NCBI RefSeq assembly: GCF_900105385.1
Contig: NZ_LT629772.1
Coordinates: 3,658,001 to 3,722,000, forward strand
Length of the DNA: 64,000 nucleotides
Source: Microlunatus soli
GTDB taxonomy: Bacteria > Actinomycetota > Actinomycetes > Propionibacteriales > Propionibacteriaceae
Direction: 5' to 3'
Positions within the stretch are counted from its first letter, which is position 1; each line of letters starts with the position of its first letter. The notes below the pieces were generated by a model. It was not told where the DNA came from and did not search any database. It was given only the letters and a program-made list of their open reading frames with translations. Positions 1 through 23,523 of this stretch are shown one piece after another. The translations under genes and the position numbers were made by a program.

Positions 1-261
1 GGTGATCGTTCTCCCGCCGGCGGAATCGTCGGCGCCGACCGAACCGAGGATCGTTCCGGAGGTGGAACTGAACAGTTTGGGGTTCTTGAGTACGAACTCG
101 CAATCGGCATGCCGGGTGACCGACCAGAACGGGGTGCCGTTGGCCGCCCGGCTCCGGCTCACCGGTTCGTGGCGTCGCAGCTCGGCCCAAAGGTCGTGCG
201 GCGGACCCTGACCGAAGACCTGCGGTGAGTACAGGTCGAGCTCGACCGCGGTCCCGGTCAT
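1..261 (-). CDS. Cytochrome P450, N-terminal part (cut by window edge)
   Basis: The first 87 codons of a P450 that runs off the left edge. I read MTGTAVELDLYSPQVFGQG, then a DLWAELRRHEPV helix, a FWSVTRHADCEFVL strand-helix and a NPKLFSSTSG turn, which is the usual order at the start of bacterial P450s. The I-helix and heme-cysteine loop are outside, so activity cannot be judged. Its ATG overlaps the TGA of the A-PCP gene (ATGA), so the two are translationally coupled. P450s paired with A-PCP didomains (NikQ, NovI, TioI types) hydroxylate the beta carbon of a carrier-bound amino acid. I infer that role here, most likely on tryptophan given the dioxygenase nearby. Confidence 0.85.
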   Translation of the reverse strand, partial: MTGTAVELDLYSPQVFGQGPPHDLWAELRRHEPVSRSRAANGTPFWSVTRHADCEFVLKNPKLFSSTSGTILGSVGADDSAGGRTIT

Positions 262-2066
262 GCCGCGCTCACCTGCAGCGGTGGGACCGCAACGCCCGAG
301 TCGGACGATTCGGTGCGGCGGGACTCGACCAGCTCAGCCAGTTCGGAGACGGTCTGATGACTGAAGAATTCGTGCGCGGCGACGTCGACGCCCTGTTTGC
401 GAAGCTTGCCGAGGAGATCGACGCTGCGCAAGGAATCGCCACCGAGCAGGTAGTAGTTGTCGGCGGTGCCGACCTGATCCAGTCCGAGAGTGTCTGCCCA
501 GGCTTCGCACAGCAGCTCCTCCAGCGGGCTGGCCGGCGCAACGTACTCGTCGAGTTCGGCCATTGCGGCCCGACTCGCCCACGGGTACGGCAATGCCGAT
601 CGATCCGGTTTGCCGTTCGGATCCAGCGGCATCGCATCGAGCACGGTGAACACCGACGGCAGCATGTATTCGGGCAGCCGCTCCAGAAGGTGGCCGCGGA
701 GCACTGAGGCGTTGACCGTGCCGTCGGCAGCGGCGGTGACGAAGGCACCCAGCCGCTTGACGTTGCCCAGGTCGAACACCTGGACCGCGACCTGGCCGAC
801 ATCGGCGTGATCGGCGAGGACCGACTCGATCTCGGCGAGCTCGATCCGGTGACCGCGAATCTTCAGCTGCCGATCAATTCGTCCGCGGAAGCCGAATATG
901 CCGTCCTGGAACGTGCCGCGGTCGCCGCTGCGGTAGCGCCGGGAACCGGGTGCGCCGCTCGGGTCGGGGACGAACCGTTCAGCGGTCAGCCGCGGGTGAT
1001 TGTGGTAACCGCGGGCGACACCGGCGCCGCCGATCAGGATCTCGGCAACCTTCTCGTCGTCTCCGGGCGTGCCGGTGGAGGTCTCGGCAAGCTCCATCGC
1101 GGCGTTGTCCAGCGGCGACCCGATCGGGACGCTGCCGGCGGGGTCGACGCGTTCGGTCGGGCACAGCGAGGCGAAGGTCGTGGTCTCCGTCGGTCCGTAG
1201 GCCGCATACAGCTGTCGTCGTGGCACGCCGGCAGCACGGCCGAACAATTTGGGCGACAGCACGTCACCACCGGTGATCACCGTGCCGACAGCCGACAGGG
1301 CATCCAGATCCTGGTCGACGACCAGATGGAACAGACCGGTGGTGAGGAACAGCCAGTCCGGTCGAACCCTGCGCAGCCGCGATCCGAGCTCGGCGACCGA
1401 CAACCGGGCCGGGAGCACAGCGACCGTACCCCCGGCGGTGAGTGCAGCCCAGATCTCGAAGGTCGCCGCATCGAATGCGGTCGGCGCAAGGTGCGCCACG
1501 GTCTCCCCGGGGCCGACAGCGATCCTGTGGTCGGACAGCAGCGCATCGATATTGCGATGCGAAACGACAACACCCTTGGGGCGCCCGGTCGATCCCGACG
1601 TGTACATCAGGTAGGCAGCATTGTCCGGGTCGGCTTCGCAGTCGGCACGCAGCCGGTCGGGTACCGATGCTGCGGCACCGTCGGCCTCCAGCGACCTGAG
1701 GCTGATCGCATCCGCCGGCTCGTCCGGTCCGGGACCGATCCGGACTCGGCAGCCGGCGTCGGTCCGGAGCAGGTCCTTGCGTGCATCGGGGTAGCTCGGG
1801 TCGACCGGCACATAGCAGCCGCCCGCCTTCAACACGGCCAGGAATGCGGTGATCGCGGCGGCGCCGCGGGGCAGCTCGACAGCGACCCGGTCCTCCGGCC
1901 CGATCCCGGTGGCACGCAAGCGGGCAGCGAGTGCCTCGGCTCTCCCGTCGAGCTCGGCGTAGCTGATCTCGGTCAGATCGTCATCGACGACGGCTGCCCG
2001 GGCCGGGAAGCGGGCTGCCCAATCGGCGAACTGCTGGTGGATCGGGGTTGTTGGCTCCGTGGTCAT
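258..2066 (-). CDS. NRPS adenylation-carrier (A-PCP) didomain protein
   Basis: A 602-residue free-standing NRPS loading protein. It has an adenylation domain, with TSGSTGRPKG as P-loop, AYGPTETT and QLKIRGHRIE with the late catalytic lysine region. A peptidyl-carrier domain ends with LGGDSLRS, where Ser545 is the phosphopantetheine site. There is no condensation or thioesterase domain. The acidic residue that binds the substrate amino group is present in FDAATFEIW, so the substrate is an alpha-amino acid rather than an aryl acid. A hand alignment to GrsA gives pocket residues D-A-F-G-I-G-A-T-F, which is hydrophobic but not one I can assign. The start is the ATG after GGGAGG rather than upstream in-frame codons. 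It overlaps the P450 start by ATGA. Likely role: tether an amino acid, probably tryptophan, for beta-hydroxylation. No MbtH partner is seen in the window. Confidence 0.9.
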   Translation of the reverse strand: MTTEPTTPIHQQFADWAARFPARAAVVDDDLTEISYAELDGRAEALAARLRATGIGPEDRVAVELPRGAAAITAFLAVLKAGGCYVPVDPSYPDARKDLLRTDAGCRVRIGPGPDEPADAISLRSLEADGAAASVPDRLRADCEADPDNAAYLMYTSGSTGRPKGVVVSHRNIDALLSDHRIAVGPGETVAHLAPTAFDAATFEIWAALTAGGTVAVLPARLSVAELGSRLRRVRPDWLFLTTGLFHLVVDQDLDALSAVGTVITGGDVLSPKLFGRAAGVPRRQLYAAYGPTETTTFASLCPTERVDPAGSVPIGSPLDNAAMELAETSTGTPGDDEKVAEILIGGAGVARGYHNHPRLTAERFVPDPSGAPGSRRYRSGDRGTFQDGIFGFRGRIDRQLKIRGHRIELAEIESVLADHADVGQVAVQVFDLGNVKRLGAFVTAAADGTVNASVLRGHLLERLPEYMLPSVFTVLDAMPLDPNGKPDRSALPYPWASRAAMAELDEYVAPASPLEELLCEAWADTLGLDQVGTADNYYLLGGDSLRSVDLLGKLRKQGVDVAAHEFFSHQTVSELAELVESRRTESSDSGVAVPPLQVSAA

Positions 2067-2304
2067 TGTTGTGCCTCCCGTGCTGCCGTGCTCATCGGTG
2101 ACCGGGCACAACCGTGATGATCGGGTGTTGCGCTGGCCGATCGCGCCGGTCGGTGTGGAGTCAATGTCAGCCAGTGCGACGTCCGGCGGCAAGGCCGGCC
2201 GAAGGATTCCGGAAGGGCGGCGCGGATCGCCGCGGTCCGATGCCTGACGCCCTGGAAGCTTCGGGAAAGAGTTCTCCCACGGTGGCCGGCGGCGAGGTCT
2301 GCTG
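2067..2304. promoter_or_regulatory. Divergent intergenic region
   Basis: This 238-bp gap lies between the start of the minus-strand A-PCP/P450 unit and the plus-strand SDR/aminotransferase/dioxygenase unit. Both transcripts must start here. The Shine-Dalgarno for the minus gene (GGGAGG) lies at about 2073-2078. The one for the SDR (GGCGAGG) is at 2291-2297. I do not see a convincing palindromic operator. Confidence 0.5.
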
Positions 2305-3069
2305 GTGATCATGCAGTCCGCATACTCCAGTGAGTCCGCGCGACGCTATCTCGTCACTGGTGCGGGAAGCGGGATCGGCCGGGCCATCGCCGCCGGGTTG
2401 GCCGAGTCGGGGGCAACGGTGATCGCCGTCGGTCGCCGCCGCGCTCCGTTGGCCGATCTCGCTGCTCAGCATCCCACGGTGGTGCCGATGCCGGCCGATG
2501 TCACCGACCCGGCGACTCCGAGCCGGCTCGCTGCTGCCGTACGGTCCGATCCGGGACGGCTGGACGGGCTGGTGAACTGTGCGGGGCTTGCCCGCTTCGC
2601 AGCGCTGCCGGACGCAGGGCTGGACCAGTTGGATGCGATGTACGCGGTGAATCTGCGCGCCCCGGTAGCACTGACGCAGGCGTTGCTGACTCCGCTGCGG
2701 CGCGCCACCGGATGTGTCCTGAATGTCAGCTCGATCGGTGGCGTCCTGGCGATGCCGGGACGTGCACTCTACGGCGCCACGAAGGCGGCGTTGAATTCGC
2801 TGACCCGATCGTTGGCCCATGAGTTGGCACCGCAGATCCGGGTGAATGCCCTGGTGCCCGGTGCTGTGGACACCCCGATGTACGACGATCTCGGGCTGGA
2901 CGATCCACAGACCGAAGAGCTCCGGGCCGGCCTGCTGTCCAGCACGCCGATGGGCAGGTTCGGCACGCCGGAGGAGGTCGCCCGGTGGGCAGACCTGATC
3001 CTGGACCCCGATCGCTCGGGATGGATGACCGGAGCCCTGCTCACTGTCGATGGCGGACGCAGCAGTTGA
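2305..3069 (+). CDS. Classical short-chain dehydrogenase/reductase
   Basis: A 254-residue NAD(P)-dependent SDR. The Rossmann motif TGAGSGIG is near residue 18, followed by NCAG, the catalytic Ser in NVSSIGG and YGATK as the Tyr/Lys pair, and a C-terminal substrate loop ending in LTVDGG. Length and motifs are normal for the family. GTG at 2305 is preferred over ATG at 2311 because GGCGAGG sits 7 nt before it. It is the first gene of a three-gene plus-strand unit with the aminotransferase and dioxygenase. In a quinaldate-type pathway a ketone reduction at the future C4 is needed before the ring is aromatised without an oxygen there. That would suit this enzyme, but it is inference. Confidence 0.88.
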   Translation: MIMQSAYSSESARRYLVTGAGSGIGRAIAAGLAESGATVIAVGRRRAPLADLAAQHPTVVPMPADVTDPATPSRLAAAVRSDPGRLDGLVNCAGLARFAALPDAGLDQLDAMYAVNLRAPVALTQALLTPLRRATGCVLNVSSIGGVLAMPGRALYGATKAALNSLTRSLAHELAPQIRVNALVPGAVDTPMYDDLGLDDPQTEELRAGLLSSTPMGRFGTPEEVARWADLILDPDRSGWMTGALLTVDGGRSS

Positions 3070-3104
3070 CCCCGTAAAGCTGATCCGATGAAAGGTGATC
3101 TGTG

Positions 3105-4349
3105 ATGTTGACCGAGACCTCGGAGCGTCGGCCACCGGCCGCGGCAGTGCCGGCTTCCAGCCTGCATGCGGCGTTCCGCAGCGCCGAGCAGTGGGAGAGC
3201 CGACACGGGCGTCGGGCGATCAAGCTGCAGGTCGGCGAACCGGCCTATCCGATGCCTACCGCGGTCCGGGAGGCGATGGCAGCGGCTGTCCGGGCCGGCG
3301 ACTGCGCCTACACCAGTGCCGAAGGCAGCGTGACGCTGCGGGACGCCCTTGCTGCCCGACTGAACGGGCACGGCCTGGACACCGACCCCGAGCGCGTCTT
3401 CGTCACGCCAGGGTCCTGCCAGGGGCTGTGGGCAGTGCTCACCTCCATCGTGACTCCGGGTGCCGCTGTGCTGATCCCGGAGTTGCATTGGCCGATCTAC
3501 CGACAGCAGGCGATCCTGACCGGCTTCACGCCGATCGGCTACCCGCTGCGGGCCGACTACACCCCCGATCCCGACGGGATCGCCGCGGCAGCGGCATCGA
3601 TCGCCGCGCCGGGCGGCGGGACGGACGGCGACCGGCCGACTCGGGTGGCGGCGATCATCGTGAACTCTCCGGCCAATCCGACCGGTGCGATCACCCCGGT
3701 CGACGATCTGGCCCGGATCCTGGAACTGGCCGATCGTCACGACTGGGCCGTGATCAGCGACGAGGCTTACCAGGACTTCGTCTACCGTGGCCGACACAGC
3801 AGCACCGCGGCGTTGGAGGCAGATCGGCAACCGGCGGCTCGGCGGGTGTTCTCCACCTTCAGCTTCTCCAAGAGTCATGCCATGACCGGGTGCAGGGTCG
3901 GTTACGTCACCGCCCCCGACAGCACCCGCGCCGATGTCCTGCGAAGGGTCCAGGAATCCTGCATCATCGCGCCGCCGACGCCGGCCCAGCGGGGGGCGAT
4001 GGCAGGACTGGCCACCGACCGTGAGGTCGAGGCCAATGCCACTCACGTCCACGACAACCTCGCCGCGGTCGCCGGCCGACTCAGCGCGGCGGGCATGGTG
4101 AACAACGTCCCGGCCGGCGGCTGGTACGCGCTGCTCGACGTCACCGAGAGCGGATTGGATGCCGGCCGGTTCGCCGAACGCCTGCTGGAGGACGCGGGCG
4201 TCGCGGTTGCCCCGGCGGCAGCATTCGCCCTCCCCGGCGACGACCGGTCGAGCAAACTGATCCGGATCTCGCTGGCGGGCGATCGGGCCGAGCTGACCGC
4301 GGGAGTCGATGCGATCATCGCCCAGCATCGCGCCGGAGGTGTCCGGTGA
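3105..4349 (+). CDS. PLP-dependent class I/II aminotransferase
   Basis: A 414-residue fold-type I aminotransferase. NSPANPTGA and DEAYQDFVYRG hold the PLP-binding Asn and Asp, and FSFSKSHAMTGCRVGY holds the Schiff-base lysine (about K256). The family transfers amino groups from amino acids and includes kynurenine aminotransferases. The ATG at 3105 is chosen over GTG 3102 because AAAGGTG lies 7 nt upstream of it. Its TGA overlaps the GTG of the dioxygenase. With a tryptophan dioxygenase next door and no kynureninase in view, the probable substrate is (beta-hydroxy)kynurenine, whose alpha-keto product closes on its own to a quinoline-2-carboxylate. In thiocoraline the corresponding enzyme is TioG (from memory). 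Confidence 0.87.
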   Translation: MLTETSERRPPAAAVPASSLHAAFRSAEQWESRHGRRAIKLQVGEPAYPMPTAVREAMAAAVRAGDCAYTSAEGSVTLRDALAARLNGHGLDTDPERVFVTPGSCQGLWAVLTSIVTPGAAVLIPELHWPIYRQQAILTGFTPIGYPLRADYTPDPDGIAAAAASIAAPGGGTDGDRPTRVAAIIVNSPANPTGAITPVDDLARILELADRHDWAVISDEAYQDFVYRGRHSSTAALEADRQPAARRVFSTFSFSKSHAMTGCRVGYVTAPDSTRADVLRRVQESCIIAPPTPAQRGAMAGLATDREVEANATHVHDNLAAVAGRLSAAGMVNNVPAGGWYALLDVTESGLDAGRFAERLLEDAGVAVAPAAAFALPGDDRSSKLIRISLAGDRAELTAGVDAIIAQHRAGGVR

Positions 4350-5068
4350 CCGCGCTGACCTACGCCAGCTACCTGCGGCTGGCCGAATTGCTCGAGTTGC
4401 AGCAGCTGCGGGCTGCAGCGGCGTCGCCGGCGGTGCGCGGCGCAGAACACCTCTTCATCGTCGCTCATCAGGCCTCCGAGCTGTGGGTTCGACAGCTGTT
4501 GACGGACCTGGAGCATGCGGCCTCGGCACTGGAGGGCGACGACCCCGACACGACGGCGGAGTTCCTGCGCCGGATGGTTGCGGTGGGAGGACTTCTGCGT
4601 GCGCACCTCGATGTCCTCGGCACCATGCCGGGGCATCGGTTCGCCGACTTCCGTGGCGAGCTCGGCACCGCCTCCGGTGCTCAGTCCCGGCAGTTTCGTC
4701 AGCTCGACAGTGCGCTCGGGCTGCGGCGGGATCACTGCCGGCTGATGATCGCCTTGCAGTCCACCTGTGACCGGCATCGGGTGACGTTGACCGGGCTGCT
4801 GTCCGGCGGTGCCGACGGTGCGCCGCCGGCACTGTGCGAGGTCGCCCGACTGATGGTCGACGTGGCGCGCAGCATCTGGCAGTGGAAGGTCGGCCACCTG
4901 CAGTTGGTCGCCGGCATGCTGGGCACCGACTGCACCGGAACCGGTGGATCCTCCGGCACCGGTTACCTCGGCAACCGGTTGGATCTTCCCTTCCCGGAGC
5001 TGTTCGAGGCACTGTCCGCTGTGCAACGGCCGGGTTCGACCCTGGAGACGTCCTCGCAGCCGGCCTGA
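4346..5068 (+). CDS. Tryptophan 2,3-dioxygenase family heme enzyme
   Basis: A 240-residue member of the tryptophan 2,3-dioxygenase family. FIVAHQASELW contains the active-site His (H41), RFADFRGEL and SGAQSRQFRQL match the substrate-carboxylate region, H184 in KVGHLQLV is the expected heme ligand, and TGTGGSSG (197-204) is the family's substrate loop. It is somewhat shorter than housekeeping enzymes (about 280). The GTG start overlaps the aminotransferase stop (GTGA) and has GGAGG 6 nt upstream. The family opens the indole ring to N-formylkynurenine. Homologues in thiocoraline (TioF) and echinomycin clusters act on (beta-hydroxy)tryptophan. The surrounding NRPS/P450 genes point to such a biosynthetic role rather than tryptophan catabolism. 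Confidence 0.9.
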   Translation: MTALTYASYLRLAELLELQQLRAAAASPAVRGAEHLFIVAHQASELWVRQLLTDLEHAASALEGDDPDTTAEFLRRMVAVGGLLRAHLDVLGTMPGHRFADFRGELGTASGAQSRQFRQLDSALGLRRDHCRLMIALQSTCDRHRVTLTGLLSGGADGAPPALCEVARLMVDVARSIWQWKVGHLQLVAGMLGTDCTGTGGSSGTGYLGNRLDLPFPELFEALSAVQRPGSTLETSSQPA

Positions 5069-5079
5069 AGGCGAAGCGA

Positions 5080-5121
5080 AGCCCTGCCGGGTCGCTGGTC
5101 GACAGCGACACCGGCAGGGCT
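5080..5121. terminator. Bidirectional hairpin between convergent genes
   Basis: Two stacked stems: AGCCCTGCCGG pairs with CCGGCAGGGCT (11 bp), and inside it GTCGCTG pairs with CAGCGAC. It sits between the end of the dioxygenase (plus) and the end of the P450 (minus), so it can terminate both transcripts. A short T run follows on the plus strand. Confidence 0.75.
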
Positions 5122-5129
5122 TTGGTCGG

Positions 5130-6386
5130 TCAGCCTGCCAATCGGACGGGCAGCGTCCGCAGCTGCCGGAAGAACGGAGTGGGCATCCATTGCAATTGAT
5201 CGGTGTCGAGGGCGATGTCGGGGAACCGCTCGAACATCATCGGGACCGCGATCCTGGCCTCCATCTTCGCCAACGGTGCGCCGATGCAGCGATGCAGCCC
5301 GGCACCGAATCCGAGATGGCTCCGGCCTTCGCGCGCGACGTCGAAGCGGTCCGGGTGATCGAAACGTCCCGGATCCCGATTGGCCGACTGCAGGAGTGCG
5401 GCCACCACGGACTGGGCAGGGATCAGTTGACCGGCATATTCGACGTCCTCGGTGGTGATCGCCAGCGAGATCCCGGCCGGGCCCTCGAAACGCAGGACCT
5501 CGTCGATCGCGTCACCCCAGCGTTCCGGCTCGGACTGCACCGCGGCCAGCTGCTCGGGATGGGTGATCATCAGCATCATCGATGTCGACAGCAGTCCGAC
5601 GGTCGTCTCGTGCCCGGCAACCAGCAGATTGAACGTGAGTCCGACGAGTTCGTCGGCGGAGAGCTGTTGATCATTGTCGGTCGCTTCGATCATGGCCGAG
5701 AGCAGGTCGTCACCCGGATCGATGCGCTTCCGGCGGACGAGACCCTGGAAGTATTCCACCAGGCGATGCTGGGACTCCCGCAGCCGATCGGCGGCCGCTT
5801 GGCCGCCGCCCGACATCATCAGCCCGTCCATCCAGCGCCGGAACTCCGGTCGCTCCCGGTTGGGGATGCCGAGCAGTCGGCAGATCACGGTCAGCGGCAA
5901 CGCGAATCCGAGCGCCGGAACGAGATCGACCTGGGGTCGACCGGTCATGGCGTCCATCAGCCGCTGCACCAGTTCTGCGACCGACTCCTCCAGATCTCGG
6001 ACGCGTCGGCTGGTGAATGCCGACTGCACGAGCTTGCGCATCCGGGTGTGGTCCGGTGGGTCGAGGGTGAGCAGGTTCTGGTTGGTGGCGATATCGGTGC
6101 TGCCGGTGTAGGCCAGAACCTCGTCCGGTGCGTTCCGCAGGTCCCTGCTCATCCTGCGATCGGTGAGTGCGGCCGACACATCGTCGAACCGGACCAGTAG
6201 CCACATGTCGAATCCATGCGGGGACCGGACCTTGGTCACCGGCGTGTTTGCGCGCAGTTGTGCGTAGGTCGGGTACGGATCACGGATGAAGTCCAGCGAG
6301 AACAACGAGGCGGATTCCGGCGGCTGTTGCCCGGTGGTCATCGGCTCGTTCTTCGCGTCGGTCGTCAATGTCATGCTGGGGCTCAT
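5130..6386 (-). CDS. Cytochrome P450
   Basis: A complete 418-residue soluble bacterial P450. The I-helix has AGHETT, the K-helix ExxR is in DEVLRFEGP, and the heme loop is HLGFGAGLHRCIG with the axial cysteine. ALLQSANRDPGRF is the typical meander region. The start is the ATG that overlaps the hydrolase TGA (ATGA). In-frame ATGs at 6374 and 6341 are alternatives. It belongs to a minus-strand pair with the secreted hydrolase and ends convergently with the dioxygenase. As a second P450 in this locus it is probably a tailoring oxidase, since the P450 coupled to the A-PCP gene is the better candidate for beta-hydroxylation. Confidence 0.9.
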   Translation of the reverse strand: MSPSMTLTTDAKNEPMTTGQQPPESASLFSLDFIRDPYPTYAQLRANTPVTKVRSPHGFDMWLLVRFDDVSAALTDRRMSRDLRNAPDEVLAYTGSTDIATNQNLLTLDPPDHTRMRKLVQSAFTSRRVRDLEESVAELVQRLMDAMTGRPQVDLVPALGFALPLTVICRLLGIPNRERPEFRRWMDGLMMSGGGQAAADRLRESQHRLVEYFQGLVRRKRIDPGDDLLSAMIEATDNDQQLSADELVGLTFNLLVAGHETTVGLLSTSMMLMITHPEQLAAVQSEPERWGDAIDEVLRFEGPAGISLAITTEDVEYAGQLIPAQSVVAALLQSANRDPGRFDHPDRFDVAREGRSHLGFGAGLHRCIGAPLAKMEARIAVPMMFERFPDIALDTDQLQWMPTPFFRQLRTLPVRLAG

Positions 6387-7915
6387 TTCGTCGGAAGGGG
6401 AACGCTGCAGCTGGCACGCCGGGGGACGGCGCGACCGAGGAAGAAGTCGGCGACCTCGCTGTCCACACACGGCGTCTTTCCGAGCTGCATATGACCCGAG
6501 CCCGCTACCTGAATGCTCGCCGCGTGCGCACGGTTGCGGACCCGTACAGCTCCGGAGGCCGGCGCCAGCGGGTCGTCGGTTCCGATCACGACCAGTGTCC
6601 GGCCGGTGCCGGTATGGGTCCACGGTCCGTCATTGCGGTCGACCGGTTCGGCCGGCCACTGCCGGCACTTCAGCTGGCCGTAGCCGAACATCGAGCCGAA
6701 GTGCGGTGACACCCTGGAGGCGGCACGTAGCTGCCGGTCGTAGGCACGCAGATCCTCCGGAAGCCTCTTGTCCAGGCAGGCGTGCGACAGGAACTCGGCC
6801 AGAACGGTGTTCTCACCGTGTTGCAACGGAGCGAGCGGCAACGGTTGGGATTCCATCGCAGCAAGGGTTTTCGCCAGGTCGGGCCACGCGCTGGGGAAGA
6901 TCAACTGGCCGAGCACGTACTGCAGCAGATTGCCGCCGGTGACGATGTCGTCGCGCTCGGGATGAGCCTTCCGGTTGTCCTCCATCCGCATCACCAGACG
7001 CTCGAACGCCTGTCGCGGGTCGTCGCCGCCGAAACTGCAGGACTGCGGATTGTCGGCACACCAGCTCAGGAACGTCTGGAGTGTGTGCTCGGACGCGACC
7101 ATCTGGTCCCGATCGAATCGCAACGGGTGGTTCATGTACTCGGAGATGTCCAACGGCGAGTCCAGGACCATCGCGCCGACCCGGTCGGGGAACCGGTCGG
7201 CGTACTCCTGGCCCAACAAGGTCCCGTTCGAAACCCCGATGTAGCGCAACCGTTGCTCGCCGAGCGCGGTCCGGACGATATCCAGGTCACGCGCGTCAGC
7301 GGTTGTGCTGAGGTACGGCAGGATCGAGCCGCTGCGCTCCTGACAGCGCTGGGTGATCTTGGTCGCCTCGGCAAGCCTGGTCGGCCGATCGGCCGTGGAC
7401 TGGAACGCCGGGATCGGTGCTTCGATGGCACGATCCTGTTCGTGCGTCGTGCAGCGAACCGCCGGAACGCTCTGTCCGGTGCCGCGGGTGTCGACCCCGA
7501 CGATGTCGAACTGTTTGTTCAACCGGCCGAACAGCTGCTGCCCGTACTGCGACACGAAGGCGGTCCCGCCGCCGGCCTGGGTCCCCGCATTCACCACAAT
7601 GGTGCCGCGGCTCGCCCCAGTTGCCGGATGTCTCACCAGCGCCAGGCCGATCGTGCGACCCTCCGGATGATCATGGTCCAACGGCACCGGCAGCCTCGCA
7701 CATTGCGGTGTGGACCCGGCATCGGTGGCGGTGCCGGCCGTCGCAGGGCAACTCTGCCAGGAGATCGGCGCCGCCGGTCTCGGTTCTGCCGATGCCTGGT
7801 CGGCATGAGGTGTGGCGGACAGGGCAGGGATGATCAGAGCGGCGATGGCGGCAGCGACCGGGATTCCCGGGAACACCGACGGCGACAACGAATGCTTCGA
7901 CCGGATGGAGCGCAT
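6383..7915 (-). CDS. Secreted alpha/beta-hydrolase of the tripeptidyl-aminopeptidase (TAP) type
   Basis: A 510-residue exported hydrolase. A basic N-terminus and a hydrophobic stretch (about residues 18-33) form a signal peptide. VDTRGTGQS is the oxyanion region, the nucleophile elbow is GVSNGTLLG (most relatives have GxSYG), the acid is in GTDDPLAP and the His is in GSGHMQLG. Two C-terminal cysteines fit the TAP-like C-terminal domain. GGAGGAAAC precedes the ATG. Family members cleave N-terminal tripeptides or act on small esters and amides. Being stop-start coupled to a P450 inside an NRPS locus, it may mature, activate or inactivate the product outside the cell, but a general peptidase role is equally possible. 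Confidence 0.85.
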   Translation of the reverse strand: MRSIRSKHSLSPSVFPGIPVAAAIAALIIPALSATPHADQASAEPRPAAPISWQSCPATAGTATDAGSTPQCARLPVPLDHDHPEGRTIGLALVRHPATGASRGTIVVNAGTQAGGGTAFVSQYGQQLFGRLNKQFDIVGVDTRGTGQSVPAVRCTTHEQDRAIEAPIPAFQSTADRPTRLAEATKITQRCQERSGSILPYLSTTADARDLDIVRTALGEQRLRYIGVSNGTLLGQEYADRFPDRVGAMVLDSPLDISEYMNHPLRFDRDQMVASEHTLQTFLSWCADNPQSCSFGGDDPRQAFERLVMRMEDNRKAHPERDDIVTGGNLLQYVLGQLIFPSAWPDLAKTLAAMESQPLPLAPLQHGENTVLAEFLSHACLDKRLPEDLRAYDRQLRAASRVSPHFGSMFGYGQLKCRQWPAEPVDRNDGPWTHTGTGRTLVVIGTDDPLAPASGAVRVRNRAHAASIQVAGSGHMQLGKTPCVDSEVADFFLGRAVPRRASCSVPLPTK

Positions 7916-8042
7916 GTTTCCTCCGTTGCTGGGCGGTCTCGACGCCCGCCACGCTAGGAAACCTGCGCCGGTGGCTCGACAGTTCTGTGTCGATCCTGTC
8001 TGCTGCTCCCGAGTGCGGTCGCGTGAGTTCAGCGCGGGAGGT

Positions 8043-9224
8043 TCAATCGGTGGTGATCGACAGCGAGGAACAGCCCTTGAACTGCTCGATGCCCGCCAGG
8101 TCCTTCTCGATCGCTGTCAACGTCGACTTGCTGAAGCGGCCGAAGGCGGCGACCTTCGCGGTCAACTTCTTGCCCTTCTTCTCCAGCCGGCAGGTGCCGG
8201 TCACCCGGCCGCGTTCCAACACAACGCCCGGGTTCCCCGTCGCTCGCCACAGCTGTTTGTGCACAGCAGGGTCGGCGATGGTGGCTCGGTCGCGTTGATA
8301 GAGGTAGGGGTCGTACGGCGGTATCACCCGGACCGCAGGGGGTTCCGGGGCATCGACGTAGTCCTTGGCGGCTCCGGCCACCACCCAGGCATCGTGATCC
8401 TCGAACCGGACCTGCTCGAGGTCGCCCTGGTCCCAGATCCGCTGGGCGACGCTGGGCGCAACCCCCGCCCATTCGGCCAACCGCTCCGGAGTGGATGGCC
8501 CGTAACAGCGCAGATATCTGTTCAGCAGCTCGATCCTGGCCTGTTTGGGCGACAACTTCTTCGGCTTCGGTTGCGGCTTCGGCGCCGCTGCCAACCATTG
8601 ATCCGTACGAACGAAGGACGCCTCGTTGCCGCGCCGCGGTGCGAAACAGAAGAGGCCGGTCACCGCGACCGGACGGGCGAGCACCGCGGTGAACGAACTG
8701 AACTGATCGGGCTCGAACAGCGCAGCGAGTTGCTTGGGGAAGTGCGGAGCCAACGCGCTGCCCAGCTCACGTTTGGACAGTTCCTTGCCGTCCAATTCGG
8801 TCTCGATCGCCTCCCGCATGGTGGCGACCATGTCGCCGGCGCGGAGATCATGCTTGTCGAATTCAGCGATCAGCCCGCCGACGGCGAACCGGTTGGCCTC
8901 CTCGTCATCGGGCACCAGCGGTTCGGTGAACACCGCGAGATCTCGGGTCGGGAACACGCACGGCGCCTGCCGCAGACTCCACAGCTGCAGCAGCGACCGG
9001 TCGGCGTCCAAGGCCGTGCTGAACGCGTCCGGCGTCAGTTCCGGCACCCGACAGCGGAGGGCCAGTGCCGCTGTCCCCGGTGGGGTGTTCTGCACGGCTA
9101 CGGCTCCGGCCGCAGTGTCCAGATCCGGCGCCGGCGATGTCAGATGGTGCTCCGCCATCCGGTAGCCGATCGCCTCCTCCGCTGTGATCTTGGTGTTGCT
9201 CCTCATGTTCGTCCGGGCGGTCAC
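8043..9224 (-). CDS. HTH_42 winged-helix protein (AlkZ/YcaQ-like DNA glycosylase family)
   Basis: A 393-residue protein of the HTH_42 family, recognised by LWSLRQAPCVFPTRDL and by the tandem winged-helix middle. Proven members are DNA glycosylases that unhook crosslinks or excise bulky adducts: E. coli YcaQ and AlkZ, the latter a self-resistance enzyme in the azinomycin cluster. The catalytic segment is normally Q-phi-Q or Q-phi-D. Here the matching stretch reads AVQNTPPG, so the first Gln is kept and the third position is Thr, and activity is uncertain. A GTG start with GGAGG just upstream is used. It lies upstream of and in the same direction as the hydrolase-P450 pair (127-bp gap). Its location inside an NRPS locus suggests self-protection from a DNA-reactive product, but such proteins are also common outside clusters. 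Confidence 0.8.
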   Translation of the reverse strand: MTARTNMRSNTKITAEEAIGYRMAEHHLTSPAPDLDTAAGAVAVQNTPPGTAALALRCRVPELTPDAFSTALDADRSLLQLWSLRQAPCVFPTRDLAVFTEPLVPDDEEANRFAVGGLIAEFDKHDLRAGDMVATMREAIETELDGKELSKRELGSALAPHFPKQLAALFEPDQFSSFTAVLARPVAVTGLFCFAPRRGNEASFVRTDQWLAAAPKPQPKPKKLSPKQARIELLNRYLRCYGPSTPERLAEWAGVAPSVAQRIWDQGDLEQVRFEDHDAWVVAGAAKDYVDAPEPPAVRVIPPYDPYLYQRDRATIADPAVHKQLWRATGNPGVVLERGRVTGTCRLEKKGKKLTAKVAAFGRFSKSTLTAIEKDLAGIEQFKGCSSLSITTD

Positions 9225-9407
9225 GGGACCTCCAAGGTCGGCGGCAGCAGCGTCAGCTGCCCTGTCGGGCAGGTCGCTGTCGACCTTAACCAGACAACGG
9301 TTCGGCGCACAGAGCCGAGAAAGAACTCTTGCCGGTCCTGGCGGCTGACGGGCACCGTCGACTCATCGGGCATCCGTGCCGCGCCGAGTTCGCCGGGAGC
9401 GACTTCC

Positions 9408-12400
9408 ATGACCAGTCTTGACATGTTCGCCACCGAGACCATTGCGCCCTGTGTGCCGTTACCGGCCGGCTTCCTACAGCAGGCGGAGGACGACCCGCAG
9501 CGAGTCGCGCTGTCCTGGTCCGGTGAGCCGTGGACCTTCGGCCGACTGGCCGATCGCAGTCGACGCTATGCGACGCTGTTGGACGAACGGATCCCGGCCG
9601 GAGGATGGGTGGCGATCTGTGCCGAGCGCAGTCCGGAGGTCGTCGGTCTGGTGATGGGTGCGTTGCTCGCCGGTCGGGCGGTGGTCCCGCTGGAGCCGGC
9701 GCACCCGGTACCGCGGCTGCGCAGCACATTGGACGATGCCGAACCCGCGCTGCTGATCCATGATCACACCGCGCCGGCCGGTCTGATCACCTCCTGGACG
9801 GGCGACCAGGCGTCGTTGGACGAGGTCGCCGCCGAGGTCGTCCTGGTCGACGAGCCCGACCCGATCTCGCCGGACCCGGCCGACGTCGCCTATGTGATCT
9901 ACACCTCCGGCTCGACCGGGCAGCCGAAGGGCGTGATGGTCCAGCATCAGCAGCTGGCCGATCTGGTGATCGCGCGAACCACCGCCGACCCGATGATCAC
10001 CACCGGTGACACGGTGCTCTCGATAGCCAGCCTCGCGTTCGACATGATGGTCACCGACATTTTCGTGACTCTGGCTGCCGGTGCCCGGGTGGTGCTGCCG
10101 CCGGAGGGAGACCGGCAACGCGATCCGGACGCTCTGTTGGCTGCCATCGAGGATCACCAGGTGACCACGGTGTATGCAACACCATCCCTGCTGCAGATGT
10201 TGGTGCTGGCTGGGCTCGGTTCCGAGGGGCGTCGCAAGATCAGGGTGCTCACCGGCGGCGAAGCCTTCAGCGAATCCCTCGCCGATGAACTGATCGGGCG
10301 CACCTCGGAGCTGTACAACGGTTACGGACCGACCGAGACCACGGTCTATGCGTCGTTCCACAAGATCACCGACACCGGGCATCGCCCCCTCGGCCGGCCG
10401 ATCCCCGGAGCGCGGTTCTATCCGCTGGACGACCGACTCTCGATCAAGCCGATGCATGTCCGGGCGGAGCTCGGTATCGGTGGCAGCCTGGTCTCGGCCG
10501 GCTACCACCGGCGTGCGGCCCTGACCGCCGATCGTTTCCGTCCGGATCCGTACGCGACCGTTCCGGGCTCGCGCTGCTATCTGAGTGCCGACATGATCAA
10601 GGTCGACGGCGGCGGGCACGTGATCTTCGTTGGCCGGAAGGACTCCCAGGTCAAGATCCGCGGCCATCGGGTCGAGCCCGGAGAGGTGGAAGCCGTGCTG
10701 GCTGCGCTGGACGGTGTCGAGCAGGCAGCGGTGATCACCACCGACGACGGACCCGGTGGCACCGAGCTGCTCGGGTGCTACGTCGGCGGAGCGGACGTGA
10801 CCGAGGTCCGGGAGGGCTTGCGGGCGCGGCTTCCTGAGCCGATGGTGCCGGCTCGGCTGCAATCGGTGGCCGCCATCCCGCTGACCGTGAACGGCAAACT
10901 CGATCGCTCGGCATTGGTACTGCGTGACGACCGGTCCGGTACGGTCGAATCGGCAGAGCCGGAGTCGGAACTCGAACGCAGCATCGCGGCGCTGTGGTGT
11001 GAAGTCCTTGAGCAGCCGAGGGTCGGGCTGACCGACAGCTTCTTCGATCTCGGTGGGCATTCACTGCTGGCGATGGAGATCGTTGCCAGGATCCGGGTTG
11101 CCTGGGGCACCAACCTCTCGGTGTGGGAACTGTTCGCCGAACCGACGGTGCAGGCTTGGGCCGCGGCCCTGGAGCAGGCGCTCGGATCGGATGACGAGGG
11201 CGACCAGGTGCGGACCGCTCCGGTCTCATTCGTCCAAGCGGCGCTGTGCGTTGCCGAACAGGTGGTACCGGGGAGCACCAGCCCCGGCTACGTGACCTCG
11301 GCCGATCTGACCGGGAAGCCAGACACCGGACGCCTGTTGGCCGCGCTGGAGAGCGTGGTGTTACGACATGACTCGCTGCGCACCAGGATCGACCTGCGCG
11401 GAGCGGACTCCCTCCAGGTCGTCGAGCAATATGCCGATCTCGACTTCGACGAACAGGTCGTCCGGGATCGCGACGAAGTGCACCGCGTCGTCGAGCAGTG
11501 GGCGGCCGAGCCGTTCGATCTGAGCACCGGACCACTGTTCCGGGTGCTGCTGACCGAGAACGCGGATCCCACCGATGCCCGCCACTGGTCGCTCCACCTG
11601 AATCTTCACGATGTGATCGGCGACCGGCAGTCCGCCGTCATCATGCTGCAAGAGCTTGCGGACCGTTATGCAGGCATCGACGCCGCCGACGGGCAGGACG
11701 GTCCGAGCTCGCTGCTGGACCTCTCCAAGCTGCAACGGAGCCAGTCGGCTTCCCCAGAGGCCGAAGCCCTGCTCACCGCGTGGGAATCGCGGCTCGCCCG
11801 TCGCGCAGTCGAAGCCGACGATCGATTCGAGACCGCGGTCTGCCCGGCAACACTCGATCCACAGACCGTCGATCGGCTCCGACGCCGCGCCGAACAGGCC
11901 GACACCGACCTGCAGACGGTCCTCCTCGCCGCGCTGCTGCAGGTGACCGGGACGCGGCTCGGTGCGTTGGTCCTCGACGGGCGGACGGCGGCGACCGCCG
12001 ACATCGTCGGGCGGTTGGCGTCGACACTGCTGATCCCGACGTCGACCGCCGACCGTTCCGGTCCACCGAGCGTGACCGAGGTCCTCCGGGCCAAGGAATG
12101 GGCAGAGCAGAATCCTGTCCCGGCCGAATTGCTGACAGTCAGACTTCCGGGGCGGGTGACAGTCCCCGACGCGGTGGTTTCGGTGGCCGACTCCGCAGCC
12201 GCGATACCTACCGATGGGGGGCTGGTGATCCGCCCGCCGGAGGTCGGCGGTGCCACGGCCGGGCCGCGGACCGGTATCGGAGTAGTGCTCGAACTGCACC
12301 ACACCGCTGACGGCGGATTGACCGGGCTGATCCAGTACCGGCCGTCGATCTTCGGGGATCGGATCGAACGCGTGCTGGATGATCTCGGAGCGGTGCTCGT

Positions 12401-12467
12401 GGCCGATGACGATTCGTCGGGTGATGGTCGGGTCGGCCGGGCTGACGCCGTCGGCGGTCCGACCTGA
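9408..12467 (+). CDS. Nonribosomal peptide synthetase, A-T-C module
   Basis: A 1019-residue NRPS. The A domain (about 15-510) has YTSGSTGQPKG, YNGYGPTETT and SQVKIRGHRVEPGE. The carrier domain has Ser552 in LGGHSLLAM. A C-terminal condensation-like domain covers about 610-1000. The substrate Asp is present (LAFDMMVTDIF), so an amino acid is activated. A hand-read pocket D-M-T-S-L-G-G-V-Y gives no clear assignment. The condensation motif HHxxxDG is degenerate: the sequence reads LHDVIGD, keeping the catalytic second His (about H734) but with D and G swapped. There is no thioesterase. The order A-T-C, with the C domain last, implies that this protein either hands its aminoacyl group to a downstream partner or joins it to an acceptor. 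It is convergent with the formamidase-like gene, 4 bp away. Confidence 0.88.
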   Translation: MTSLDMFATETIAPCVPLPAGFLQQAEDDPQRVALSWSGEPWTFGRLADRSRRYATLLDERIPAGGWVAICAERSPEVVGLVMGALLAGRAVVPLEPAHPVPRLRSTLDDAEPALLIHDHTAPAGLITSWTGDQASLDEVAAEVVLVDEPDPISPDPADVAYVIYTSGSTGQPKGVMVQHQQLADLVIARTTADPMITTGDTVLSIASLAFDMMVTDIFVTLAAGARVVLPPEGDRQRDPDALLAAIEDHQVTTVYATPSLLQMLVLAGLGSEGRRKIRVLTGGEAFSESLADELIGRTSELYNGYGPTETTVYASFHKITDTGHRPLGRPIPGARFYPLDDRLSIKPMHVRAELGIGGSLVSAGYHRRAALTADRFRPDPYATVPGSRCYLSADMIKVDGGGHVIFVGRKDSQVKIRGHRVEPGEVEAVLAALDGVEQAAVITTDDGPGGTELLGCYVGGADVTEVREGLRARLPEPMVPARLQSVAAIPLTVNGKLDRSALVLRDDRSGTVESAEPESELERSIAALWCEVLEQPRVGLTDSFFDLGGHSLLAMEIVARIRVAWGTNLSVWELFAEPTVQAWAAALEQALGSDDEGDQVRTAPVSFVQAALCVAEQVVPGSTSPGYVTSADLTGKPDTGRLLAALESVVLRHDSLRTRIDLRGADSLQVVEQYADLDFDEQVVRDRDEVHRVVEQWAAEPFDLSTGPLFRVLLTENADPTDARHWSLHLNLHDVIGDRQSAVIMLQELADRYAGIDAADGQDGPSSLLDLSKLQRSQSASPEAEALLTAWESRLARRAVEADDRFETAVCPATLDPQTVDRLRRRAEQADTDLQTVLLAALLQVTGTRLGALVLDGRTAATADIVGRLASTLLIPTSTADRSGPPSVTEVLRAKEWAEQNPVPAELLTVRLPGRVTVPDAVVSVADSAAAIPTDGGLVIRPPEVGGATAGPRTGIGVVLELHHTADGGLTGLIQYRPSIFGDRIERVLDDLGAVLVADDDSSGDGRVGRADAVGGPT

Positions 12468-12471
12468 GCAG

Positions 12472-13296
12472 TCAGCCGATCAGTTCCAGGGCGGCCGACT
12501 TCGCTGCGGACCAGGCGGCACTGGTCGGATCAAGGTAGCTGAAGTGATCAACTCCGGGCAGGGTGACCAGCCGGCAGCGGTCGCCTGCCGCGACAGCGGC
12601 CTCGACGAATCGCACCGATTGGTCGATGGGGACCCGATCGTCGGCGGTCCCGTGCAGGCACACGCCGGGCACTCCGATCGGCACCCGGCTGAGCGGGGAG
12701 GCGATCGGATAGACCTCCGGACGGTCCGCTGGTTCACCGCCGAGCAAGGCCTGGACCGCACCGTCGTCCAGCCGTTGCTCGGCACCCGTGATCAGGTCCA
12801 GCACCCCGGCGAGACTGACGTAGCCCGAGAGGCGCACCCGTGGACCTGCTCCCGGTGCCCCGGTCGGGAGTCCAGGACGGGCCGCAGCCCAGGCAGCCAG
12901 GTGTGCACCGGCCGAATGGCCGACCGCGACCACCCGATCAAGAGCGAGAACCACCCCATCAAGATCAGCTGCCGGACGATCACGGTGCCCACCGGGCCGG
13001 AATCGGCCGAGCAGATCGATCGCGGCTGCCACGTCGTTGAAGGTCGCGGGCCAGCCGCCGTCTCCGTGCTGTGGGTCGTCGCCGGTCCGCCGGTATTCGA
13101 CGTTGACCAGTGCGAGTTCGCGATCGGCCAGGTCGGCGATCAACGGTTCGACCTGGTCGGCGGCATGCAGATCGCGCCAGTACCCGCCGTGCAGAAAGAT
13201 GATCACCGGCAACGGTCGATCAGTTGGCCGGTCGGGAACGGTGAGGTCGACCCAATGGCTGGGATGATCTCCGTACCGCAACCTCGTCCTGGACAA
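12472..13296 (-). CDS. Kynurenine-formamidase-like alpha/beta-hydrolase
   Basis: A 274-residue cytosolic alpha/beta-hydrolase with HGGYWRDL, the signature of the arylformamidase (N-formylkynurenine formamidase) branch. The Ser nucleophile is in GHSAGAHLAAW, the acid in HGTADDRVP and the His in GVDHFSYL. There is no signal peptide. Enzymes of this type remove the formyl group from N-formylkynurenine. With a tryptophan dioxygenase-family enzyme 7 kb away in the same locus, it would deformylate the (beta-hydroxy)formylkynurenine product and give the aminotransferase its substrate. Other esterase functions cannot be excluded from sequence alone. Confidence 0.82.
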   Translation of the reverse strand: MSRTRLRYGDHPSHWVDLTVPDRPTDRPLPVIIFLHGGYWRDLHAADQVEPLIADLADRELALVNVEYRRTGDDPQHGDGGWPATFNDVAAAIDLLGRFRPGGHRDRPAADLDGVVLALDRVVAVGHSAGAHLAAWAAARPGLPTGAPGAGPRVRLSGYVSLAGVLDLITGAEQRLDDGAVQALLGGEPADRPEVYPIASPLSRVPIGVPGVCLHGTADDRVPIDQSVRFVEAAVAAGDRCRLVTLPGVDHFSYLDPTSAAWSAAKSAALELIG

Positions 13297-20028: not shown

Positions 20029-21681
20029 TCAGCCCGGCCGGGTGGCGCCCGCCACCGGCATGTAGGAGATCTGGGTGTACTCGACGGTCTTGCCCGGCCG
20101 TGGCGCGTTGATCACCTTGCCGTTGCCGGCGTAGATGCCGACGTGGGACGGGCTCGGTCCGTAGAAGAACACCAGGTCGCCGATCTTGAGGTTGTCCATC
20201 GACACCCGCGGACTGGCCAGGAACTGCTGCTGCGAGGTCCGCGGCAGGTTCACCCCGGCCGCCTCCCAGGCCCGCAGGGTCAGACCCGAGCAGTCGAACG
20301 TGCTCGGTCCGGTCGCGCCGAACACGTACGGCTTGCCCAGCTGGGCCTTGGCGAAGTTCAGCACGACCTGGCCCTTGTTGGAGCTGGAGGGCGTACCCGG
20401 GTTGTTGTTGCTTCCGGACGACCCGGAGCCGGACGACCCGGAGCTCGGCTTGGACTTCGACAGGTACTGCGAGGTCACCCAGCGGACCGCGTTGTCGTAG
20501 ACGATCTGGGCGCGGCCGTTCTTGTAGACGCCGGTGATCCGCAGCTTGTAGCCGGTGCCGACGGTGTCCACCGTCTTGTAGTCGGCCGACGAGTTGCTCC
20601 GGATCAACAACTCCGTGGTGGCGTAACGGGAGCCGACCACCCTGGGCAGCGATGAGCCGGTGTCGCTGTCGTCCCGGGTCGAAGGCTTGGTGCTGGCCAG
20701 ATACTGGGCGGTCACCCAACGTGCACTGCCGTCCCAGATGATCTGGGCCTTGCCGTTGGACGTCTTGCCGGTGATCCGCAGCTTGGTGCCGGTCGGCACC
20801 TCGGTGATCGTCCGGAAATCGCTGCCGGAGCTGCTCCGGATCAGCAACTCGGTGGTCGCATACCGCGAACCGATCGCCTTCGGCGTCGACGAACTCGGCT
20901 TGCTCGGCTTGGCCGGCTTGCTCGGCTTCGGGGCCGGTTTGCTGCTGGGGGAGGACGGGCCACTGACCGTCCGGTTCGACAGGTACTTCGCGGTCACCCA
21001 GCGCACGGCGTCGTTGTAGATGATCTGGGCGTAGCCGTCCCGAGTCGCACCGGTGGTGTGCAGCTCGGTGCCCTTCTTCACCGTGGTGATGATGTTGAAG
21101 TCGCTGTCGGTGGTGGTCCGGATCAGCAGGTCCGCGGTTGCATACCGCGACCCGGTGTCCCGCGGCAGGTCGTTCATCGAGCTGACCAGATACTGCGACG
21201 TGACCCAGGCGCGGCTGCCGCCGTACAGGATCTCGGTGAAGCCCTTGGACTGCTTCCCGGTCAGCGAAACCTTCTGGCCGTCGGACACGTAGCCGACGAC
21301 CTTGCTGCCCAAGCTCGGACTGGAACGCACATTGAGCGGTGCGGTAGCAAGCTTGACGCCCTTGGTGTAGATGTTCGCCGGGCTGGCGGCCTTGTTGCCC
21401 TTCTTCAGGTCCAGGTACTGCGCCGACACGTAGGCCGGTGACCCGTTGAGTCGGACCTTGACCCAGCCGTTGCTGGGCTTGCCCACGGCGGTGATCCGTT
21501 GGCCGGCGGAAAGTCCGCCGACGATGTCGTACTTCGTGCCTGGGCCGGACCGGATGTTGACGCCGGCCGTGGCCGTCGCGGAATCAGCCGACGCGAGTTG
21601 GACTCCGCCGATCGTGATCGCCGCGCCGGCCGCGGCCAACGCCGTGGTCATGGCACCGGCTCTACGCAAGGTGCTGCTCAC
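20029..21681 (-). CDS. Secreted NlpC/P60 endopeptidase with five SH3 repeats
   Basis: A 550-residue exported peptidoglycan hydrolase. A signal peptide (about 1-32, ending LASADS) is followed by five bacterial SH3 domains with repeated LLIRS...WVTxQYL units (about 40-90, 107-165, 175-235, 275-335 and 350-405). A Pro/Lys and a Ser/Gly linker come next, then an NlpC/P60 domain with Cys in FDCSGLTLRAWE and His in SPSHVGIYAGN. The family cuts the D-Glu-diaminopimelate bond in stem peptides, and the SH3 repeats anchor it to the wall. The GTG start follows GAGGAGG. The SH3 part is closely related to the Rpf-type gene just upstream, and both share the same leader, so they look like paralogues under one control. 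Confidence 0.93.
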   Translation of the reverse strand: MSSTLRRAGAMTTALAAAGAAITIGGVQLASADSATATAGVNIRSGPGTKYDIVGGLSAGQRITAVGKPSNGWVKVRLNGSPAYVSAQYLDLKKGNKAASPANIYTKGVKLATAPLNVRSSPSLGSKVVGYVSDGQKVSLTGKQSKGFTEILYGGSRAWVTSQYLVSSMNDLPRDTGSRYATADLLIRTTTDSDFNIITTVKKGTELHTTGATRDGYAQIIYNDAVRWVTAKYLSNRTVSGPSSPSSKPAPKPSKPAKPSKPSSSTPKAIGSRYATTELLIRSSSGSDFRTITEVPTGTKLRITGKTSNGKAQIIWDGSARWVTAQYLASTKPSTRDDSDTGSSLPRVVGSRYATTELLIRSNSSADYKTVDTVGTGYKLRITGVYKNGRAQIVYDNAVRWVTSQYLSKSKPSSGSSGSGSSGSNNNPGTPSSSNKGQVVLNFAKAQLGKPYVFGATGPSTFDCSGLTLRAWEAAGVNLPRTSQQQFLASPRVSMDNLKIGDLVFFYGPSPSHVGIYAGNGKVINAPRPGKTVEYTQISYMPVAGATRPG

Positions 21682-21693
21682 TGTTCCTCCTCT

Positions 21694-21863
21694 ACGGCCT
21701 TCCCGGACCGTGGATGGATCTCAACGCCACCGGGACCTTGTGGTTCCCCAACCACGCCAGTCACAGCAGTCACAAACTGCGCAGGACTTTAATCACGCCA
21801 CATGGGTCCCGGCAACCCGTTGAGTACTCATGAATCACATTTGGCAATCCGACACGCCGCCCG
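21694..21863 (-). ncRNA. Conserved leader, copy A (candidate cis-regulatory RNA)
   Basis: The leader of the NlpC/P60 gene shares three blocks, in the same order and at almost the same spacing, with the leader of the Rpf-type gene: 21844-21863, 21735-21776 (a ~42-nt block containing hairpin GTGGTTGGGGAACCAC) and 21694-21705 (CGGGAAGGCCGT in transcript sense). The 5' CGGC and 3' GCCG can pair and close the element. Length, position upstream of rpf and NlpC/P60 genes, and the GGGGAACCACAAGG core recall the c-di-AMP (ydaO) class, but I do not see its GGGGTGAAT element. Separate promoter and RNA parts cannot be resolved. Confidence 0.5.
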
Positions 21864-22091
21864 AGTTGATAAAACTTCATGGTTGTGATTCAGGGCTGTC
21901 GTGAGCCTCGTCGATCAAGCCCTGCGGCCCCGTATCAGGCGGAAAATCGGGTGCGGGACCGTAAAGGCCGCCGGTGAGGTCCGCCGCTGATCACGCTCGC
22001 ATCACGAAGCGATCACGGGGACATCACCGACGGCCAAGGTCGGCTCGATCACCGGTTGAGAGTTCAGGCTTCAACCGATGATCAGCGGCTA
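21864..22091. other. Intergenic region upstream of leader A
   Basis: This is the upstream part of the 410-bp gap between the two SH3-repeat genes. It holds no gene. CCGACGGCCAAGGTCGG near 22029 is a weak hairpin that might end the Rpf-type transcript. The promoter of the NlpC/P60 gene must lie around here. Confidence 0.4.
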
Positions 22092-23507: not shown

Positions 23508-23523
23508 GGTCTTTCCTCCTTGG

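What the first reader, a model, noticed from the sequence alone, without database searches (positions are those of the whole stretch)
1..13296. Tryptophan-to-quinoline-carboxylate NRPS locus
One locus holds every step type of the 3-hydroxyquinaldate or quinoxaline chromophore route: A-PCP plus coupled P450 (beta-hydroxylation of carrier-bound Trp), a Trp dioxygenase-family enzyme, a formamidase with HGGYWR, an aminotransferase and a reductase. No kynureninase is seen, which argues against catabolism. This route is known from thiocoraline and echinomycin, whose products insert into DNA. Here it sits with only one further NRPS module (A-T-C), two P450s in all and a secreted hydrolase, so the product is likely a much smaller compound than those depsipeptides, possibly new.
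Basis: partly seen in the sequence, partly recalled or inferred. Interest (0 to 1): 0.82.

Follow-up and report, generated by a model that had tools for sequence, protein, structure and literature searches.

The report
Quinoline-capped NRPS cluster with DNA-repair genes
The stretch is the right-hand part of a large gene cluster that probably turns tryptophan into a quinoline cap on a small peptide, and it carries DNA-repair-type genes that may protect the producer from its own DNA-damaging product.

Summary
SDR-aminotransferase-TDO (window 2305-5068) keeps the order of san7-8-9 in three sandramycin-type clusters, one being Kribbella sandramycini. Its TDO falls in a biosynthetic clade (100/99); the genome has a separate catabolic-type TDO. 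The likely Trp cassette (A-T, P450, thioesterase) lies 13-17 kb left of the window, in san4-5-6 order inverted, with a pocket code 9/10 identical to San4. The A-PCP at 258-2066 has a Val/Ile-like code. The cluster also holds MbtH, three more P450s, probable 2,3-diaminobutyrate genes, a reductive-release protein, a DrrAB-like exporter and two AlkZ-like glycosylase homologues. A sister cluster in Embleya scabrispora shares 29 of 38 proteins searched, including one AlkZ-like protein, but lacks the Trp cassette. TE and N-methyltransferase domains (bisintercalators) and PKS (azinomycin) were not found. Best reading: a short, quinoline-capped, reductively released peptide that damages DNA, working like azinomycin with a thiocoraline-type chromophore. 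The product is inferred, not shown; my paper searches found no description.

The parts
1..261 (-). 3' end of a P450 gene (G000:C1:3657017-3658261), partner of the Val/Ile-like A-PCP, not the TioI orthologue
   Evidence: Pfam p450; tree places it with an Embleya P450, outside the San5 clade; PDB relatives include 4l0e and 3mgx
258..2066 (-). A-PCP didomain, pocket code DAFFIGATFK (Val/Ile-like)
   Evidence: Pfam; code identical in Embleya and SID3343 orthologues and closest otherwise to the sandramycin Val domain, 5 matches
2305..3069 (+). SDR, TioH/San7-like
   Evidence: 54-56% to san7 position in three clusters
3102..4349 (+). Aminotransferase, TioG/San8-like
   Evidence: about 45% to san8 position in three clusters
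4346..5068 (+). Tryptophan 2,3-dioxygenase, TioF/San9-like
   Evidence: 42-44% full length to san9 position; tree
5130..6374 (-). P450, conserved in Embleya (53%); start codon approximate
   Evidence: Pfam
6383..7915 (-). TAP-like alpha/beta hydrolase with a signal-peptide-like N-terminus, conserved in Embleya (42%)
   Evidence: Pfam; signal judged by eye
8043..9224 (-). AlkZ-like (HTH_42) DNA-glycosylase homologue, conserved in Embleya-type genomes (48-49%)
   Evidence: Pfam; AlkZ 5uuj the only PDB match, E 5e-12
9408..12467 (+). NRPS A-T-C, code DMTYLGGVYK (substrate unknown), C domain without HHxxxD
   Evidence: Pfam; Embleya 42%
12472..13296 (-). HGGYW alpha/beta hydrolase, possible formamidase (weak)

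Best explanation
The window holds the right end of a ~52-kb NRPS cluster (G000:C1 about 3619387-3671296; window = 3658001-3722000). Trp is loaded on a San4/TioK-type A-T (3643200-3645041) with the cluster's MbtH, beta-hydroxylated by a TioI-type P450 (3642001-3643233) and released by a type II thioesterase (3641060-3641836). It is then opened by the window TDO, transaminated and cyclised by the aminotransferase, and reduced by the SDR to a quinaldate, most likely 3-hydroxyquinaldate. An A-T didomain with Asn in place of the amino-acid-binding Asp (3630432-3632297) probably loads the aryl acid as starter. Three C domains that keep HHxxxD join few residues; candidates are Ser, a Val/Ile-like residue oxidised on its own carrier, and 2,3-diaminobutyrate made by the CysK-like, ArgH-like and ATP-grasp enzymes. 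A Re-type protein releases the chain, a DrrAB-like pair exports it, the product damages DNA, and the AlkZ-like proteins remove the producer's own lesions. Shown by sequence: gene content, synteny with sandramycin-type clusters, orthology with Embleya. Inferred: all substrates, chain order, product, DNA damage and the repair role.
For: Order and orientation of SDR-AT-TDO as san7-8-9, and TEII-P450-A-T as inverted san4-5-6, in three clusters. A5 code DAWTITGVGK against San4 DAWTMTGVGK, 9 of 10. P450 3642001 in the San5 clade at 100/99, best PDB match 4l0e E 8e-128 (P450sky by recall). TDO tree 100/99. Only MbtH of the genome over cut-off lies in the cluster. 29 of 38 cluster proteins have their counterpart on one Embleya contig. 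NAD_binding_4, ABC and PALP/Lyase_1/ATP-grasp hits. DabABC as PLP cysteine-synthase-like and partner enzymes from PMC4052310 passages. AlkZ-like proteins sit in clusters for DNA alkylators (PMC9040887).
Against: No TioJ/San3 orthologue (best 24-26%). TEII assignment is narrow: 115-136 bits against 102-111 for another TEII of the cluster, reversed in one locus; it rests on synteny. The TDO is a long branch. The Embleya sister cluster lacks the Trp cassette, so beta-hydroxylation is not needed for the family's product. The AlkZ-like motif (Q-N/D-T) differs from the published (Q/H)-Phi-Q. The genome has 8 AlkZ-like genes over cut-off, 6 outside the cluster. Formamidase weak.
Confidence: 0.6

Rival explanations
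1. One reading: the window's own A-PCP (258-2066) and coupled P450 load and beta-hydroxylate Trp.
For: It sits beside SDR-AT-TDO both here and in Embleya, where no other Trp cassette was found on the contig, and the P450 is of the PCP-hydroxylating type.
Against: Code DAFFIGATFK matches San4 poorly and the sandramycin Val domain better; its P450 lies outside the San5 clade; a closer San4-5-6 set exists in the same cluster. Embleya may instead use unhydroxylated Trp.
Confidence: 0.12
2. A new bisintercalator (quinaldopeptin-like: 3-hydroxyquinaldate plus diaminobutyrate), dimerised and cyclised by a TE domain.
For: Same chromophore genes; quinaldopeptin carries DABA (PMC4052310 passages).
Against: No NRPS-borne TE or N-methyltransferase domain in the Pfam scans; only stand-alone type II thioesterases; a Re-type protein instead. 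Epimerisation domains cannot be told from C domains by Pfam.
Confidence: 0.07
3. TDO acts on free Trp and the chain uses kynurenine or an unhydroxylated quinaldate; the A5 cassette makes a separate beta-hydroxy amino acid.
For: Embleya-type cluster has SDR-AT-TDO without the cassette and no close TioI elsewhere in either genome, best 37% (A5 itself was not searched there).
Against: The A5 cassette matches the set that accompanies this TDO in sandramycin clusters.
Confidence: 0.18
4. Ordinary tryptophan catabolism next to an unrelated NRPS fragment.
For: Enzyme types overlap with the kynurenine pathway.
Against: The genome has a second, canonical TDO that groups with catabolic ones. Of 198 family genomes searched (own included), 15 have any TDO match and the best outside the own genome is 40% over part of the length. 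The same TDO type sits beside NRPS genes in other orders.
Confidence: 0.02

Closest known systems
Sandramycin (san) and thiocoraline (tio) 3-hydroxyquinaldate pathway
   Same: SDR-AT-TDO order; San4-5-6-like A-T, P450, TEII in inverted order; MbtH; Ser module
   Different: No TioJ/San3 orthologue; dispersed NRPS parts; no TE domain; extra P450 cassettes, diaminobutyrate genes, Re-type protein, AlkZ-like proteins
Embleya scabrispora DSM 41855 uncharacterised cluster (NZ_KB889680.1)
   Same: 29 of 38 proteins, including AlkZ-like, TAP hydrolase, Re, A1, A2, A4, Ser module
   Different: Lacks A5/P450/TEII cassette, formamidase-like hydrolase, second AlkZ-like, PPTase, TIM-barrel, LuxR and kinase; has an extra methyltransferase between SDR and AT
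Azinomycin (azi)
   Same: Aryl-acid starter on an A-PCP didomain, Val-derived unit, RE step, DNA-glycosylase self-protection (PMC9570651 passages)
   Different: No PKS or azabicycle genes in our Pfam scans; quinoline instead of naphthoate; no direct sequence comparison with azi proteins was possible
AlkZ-like (AZL) self-resistance glycosylases
   Same: PF06224; inside a biosynthetic cluster; two copies, as in trioxacarcin and LL-D49194 clusters (PMC9040887)
   Different: Q-N/D-T-P where AZL has (Q/H)-Phi-Q, so not a clear AZL, YQL or AZL2 member by motif (my reading)

Membership tests
3-hydroxyquinaldate (Tio/San) chromophore pathway | TDO, aminotransferase and SDR of the TioF/G/H type together | tested here: met
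   42-56% and same order as san7-8-9; TDO clade 100/99
3-hydroxyquinaldate (Tio/San) chromophore pathway | Trp-loading A-T with MbtH and TioI-type P450 | tested here: met
   By similarity only, outside the window; not by assay
3-hydroxyquinaldate (Tio/San) chromophore pathway | TioQ-type thioesterase | tested here: inconclusive
   Right place, narrow lead over another TEII
3-hydroxyquinaldate (Tio/San) chromophore pathway | TioJ-type chromophore-activating ligase | tested here: not met
   San3 finds only 24-26% matches; an Asn-235 A-T may replace it
Bisintercalator (chromodepsipeptide) family | TE domain for dimerisation and cyclisation, N-methyltransferase domains | tested here: not met
   None in the Pfam scans of 37 cluster proteins
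Azinomycin family | Iterative PKS naphthoate and azabicycle genes | tested here: not met
   No PKS or amino-carrier genes seen in the same scans
Azinomycin family | Aryl-acid A-PCP starter and RE release | tested here: inconclusive
   Asn at 235 and NAD_binding_4 present; substrate untested
AlkZ/AZL self-resistance glycosylases | HTH_42 (PF06224) protein within a cluster | tested here: met
   Two in the cluster, one conserved in Embleya
AlkZ/AZL self-resistance glycosylases | (Q/H)-Phi-Q catalytic motif | tested here: not met
   Q-N/D-T-P in four of four aligned proteins; placement is my reading
AlkZ/AZL self-resistance glycosylases | Excision of the cluster's own DNA adduct | not testable with these tools
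   needs product and assay

The most novel reading that the evidence does not exclude
A new family of monomeric, quinoline-capped, reductively released peptide genotoxins (azinomycin-like logic with a thiocoraline-type chromophore), protected by an HTH_42 glycosylase subgroup with a Q-N/D-T motif. In this lineage a sandramycin-type Trp beta-hydroxylation cassette was added, upgrading an ancestral quinaldate cap to 3-hydroxyquinaldate.
Probability: 0.3. Interest if true: 0.78.

Novelty: new variant of a known kind. Interest (0 to 1): 0.6.

Why it matters
It would join two DNA-targeting logics known from separate families: the quinoline chromophore of the bisintercalators and repair-protected alkylators of the azinomycin type. 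It gives a producer genome, a sister cluster without the Trp cassette as a natural control, and candidate repair enzymes, so structure, lesion and resistance can each be tested.

Tried and rejected
Trp assignment of the window A-PCP: rejected on code and San4 comparison. Catabolic operon: rejected. Bisintercalator and azinomycin membership: rejected for missing defining parts. PDB matches as a guide to A-domain substrate: uninformative, generic A domains rank first. Scan of genome contigs with the single TDO protein: no relative confirmed; an alignment query worked. Structure model of the AlkZ-like protein: mean pLDDT 64.3, residues 1-61 below 50, so the motif region could not be placed; no fold search was run. 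Paper searches: azinomycin with quinaldic acid, 0 papers; quinaldic acid with DNA glycosylase and nonribosomal peptide, 0; Embleya scabrispora or DSM 41855, 21 papers of which 10 were listed and none of those listed is about this cluster by title or abstract start. Orthologues of the Asn-235 A-T at class level: 1 of 394 genomes, our own, with only the top 3 candidates per genome scored.
Full report
Observation. The gene types named are present. The locus is the right end of a larger cluster. The window is G000:C1:3658001-3722000 of a 6.73-Mb single-contig genome. I fetched 60 kb to its left. The cluster runs from a phosphopantetheinyl transferase (3619387) to the hydrolase ending at window 13296, about 52 kb; purF and purM follow (window 13561 and 15430, recognised by eye). 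Left-flank genes: C-like protein, C-A-T with a Ser-type code, a protein in which Pfam sees only a carrier domain, a C domain, threonine-aldolase-like enzyme, MbtH, A-T with Asn at position 235, three type II thioesterases, P450s at 3633463, 3642001 and 3657017, C-T-C, GHMP kinase, Re-type protein, methyltransferase, A-T at 3643200, regulators and histidine kinase, AlkZ-like protein at 3648339, DrrA/B-like pair, TIM-barrel, ArgH-like, ATP-grasp and CysK-like genes.

The quinoline route. A search of 391 genomes of the order gave 11 with a TDO match at E 1e-18 or better: our own, three with 44% over nearly the full length, and seven with 43-46% over about 127 residues. The regions of the three show ligase, A-T, P450, TEII, SDR, AT, TDO, the san3-san9 order described for sandramycin (PMC9962454, section 13 read). 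One of them, G235, has the contig length and place of Kribbella sandramycini ATCC 39419. Our SDR, AT and TDO match at 54-56%, about 45% and 42-43%. For san4 the best match is the A-T at 3643200 (45-47%; the window A-PCP 38-39%); for san5 the P450 at 3642001 (45-51%; the other three 26-34% over the main piece, with short end pieces of 39-43% and 60% in G198); for san6 the TEII at 3641060 (35-39%, 115-136 bits), only a little ahead of the TEII at 3652396 (32%, 102-111 bits). The three stand in inverted san4-5-6 order. Codes: A5 DAWTITGVGK, San4 DAWTMTGVGK; A1 DAFFIGATFK, sandramycin Val domain DAYWWGGTF-. The P450 tree puts 3642001 with San5-type enzymes at 100/99. Functions of TioK, TioI, TioQ, TioF, TioG and TioH are from PMC4052310 (passages) and PMC3578932 (abstract and one section).

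Catabolism test. The own genome has a second TDO at 3438358-3439143. In a 42-row tree the window TDO is among 18 biosynthetic rows (100/99) and the second TDO among 24 catabolic-type rows. The window row is a long branch, so its exact place in its clade is unsure. One kynureninase-like hit, below the family cut-off, lies elsewhere (3,1215402 region: G000:C1:1215402-1216577).

Sister cluster. Of the 80 loci kept (313 found), the 15 top-ranked are Actinomycetota and carry this TDO type. Two of these 15, Embleya scabrispora DSM 41855 and Streptomyces sp. SID3343, have the window's own order around it (SID3343 as far as its 12-kb contig goes). On the Embleya contig 29 of 38 proteins find their counterpart. 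Without counterpart: A5, P450 3642001, TEII 3641060, PPTase, AlkZ-like 3648339, TIM-barrel, formamidase-like hydrolase, LuxR regulator and kinase. One Embleya P450 scores slightly higher with our 3633463 P450 than with 3657017; the tree pairs it with 3657017 at 96/95. A further NRPS gene group lies at one end of that contig. In 17 loci (15 loci plus two 80-kb regions) an A5-like A-T (43% or more) is in 8, a 3642001-like P450 (45% or more) in 8, the A1/P450 3657017 type (47% or more) in 2, and no locus has both types; SDR and AT are both in 11, the formamidase-like hydrolase in 0, TAP and the window AlkZ-like protein in 1. Several loci are only 8-20 kb, so absences are weak. Neither Embleya-type genome has a close TioI-type P450 elsewhere, best 37%.

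Repair genes. The genome has 8 AlkZ-like genes over the cut-off, two of them in the cluster. The window copy is 48-49% to the Embleya-type copies and 27% to the second cluster copy. Of the 6 other own copies, 3 gave a blastp match at 24-31% and 3 none. The Kribbella sandramycini genome and Saccharomonospora piscinae gave no match to the second copy. The window copy's only PDB match is AlkZ, over its C-terminal part. Its motif differs from the published AZL motif (PMC9040887: abstract, section 4 part 1 and passages), so activity is uncertain.

Assembly. HHxxxD is kept in three C domains (3627448-about 3628835 and two in C-T-C), not in the Ser module, A2 or the terminal C-like protein. Five A domains have Pfam hits and seven carrier Ser motifs are seen. 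The order of residues cannot be read from this dispersed system. Reductive release is inferred from NAD_binding_4; the azinomycin comparison rests on passages of PMC9570651.

Verdict. A Trp-derived quinoline acid is probable (about 0.8, less for the 3-hydroxy form); the genotoxic short peptide is a reasoned but untested reading. I found nothing in print with the searches.

Noticed in passing
G000:C1:3624608-3627451 (left of window): 947-aa protein in which Pfam finds only a carrier domain; by eye a C-like part and a decayed A domain. A 30% counterpart exists in Embleya.
   Followed up: partly
G000:C1:3438358-3439143: Second, canonical TDO gene of the same genome; flanking 1.5 kb shows no obvious kynurenine-pathway gene.
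   Followed up: partly
L077:7608-8576 (Embleya scabrispora): Methyltransferase between SDR and aminotransferase in the sister cluster, absent here; may tailor the chromophore.
   Followed up: partly
L074:16579-20683 (Saccharomonospora piscinae): Another locus with SDR-AT-TDO, a 40% P450 and a Re-type protein (36%); perhaps a more distant reductively released relative.
   Followed up: no
window 20029-23585: Two neighbouring secreted-looking proteins with similar N-termini (SH3-like by eye), beyond the cluster.
   Followed up: no
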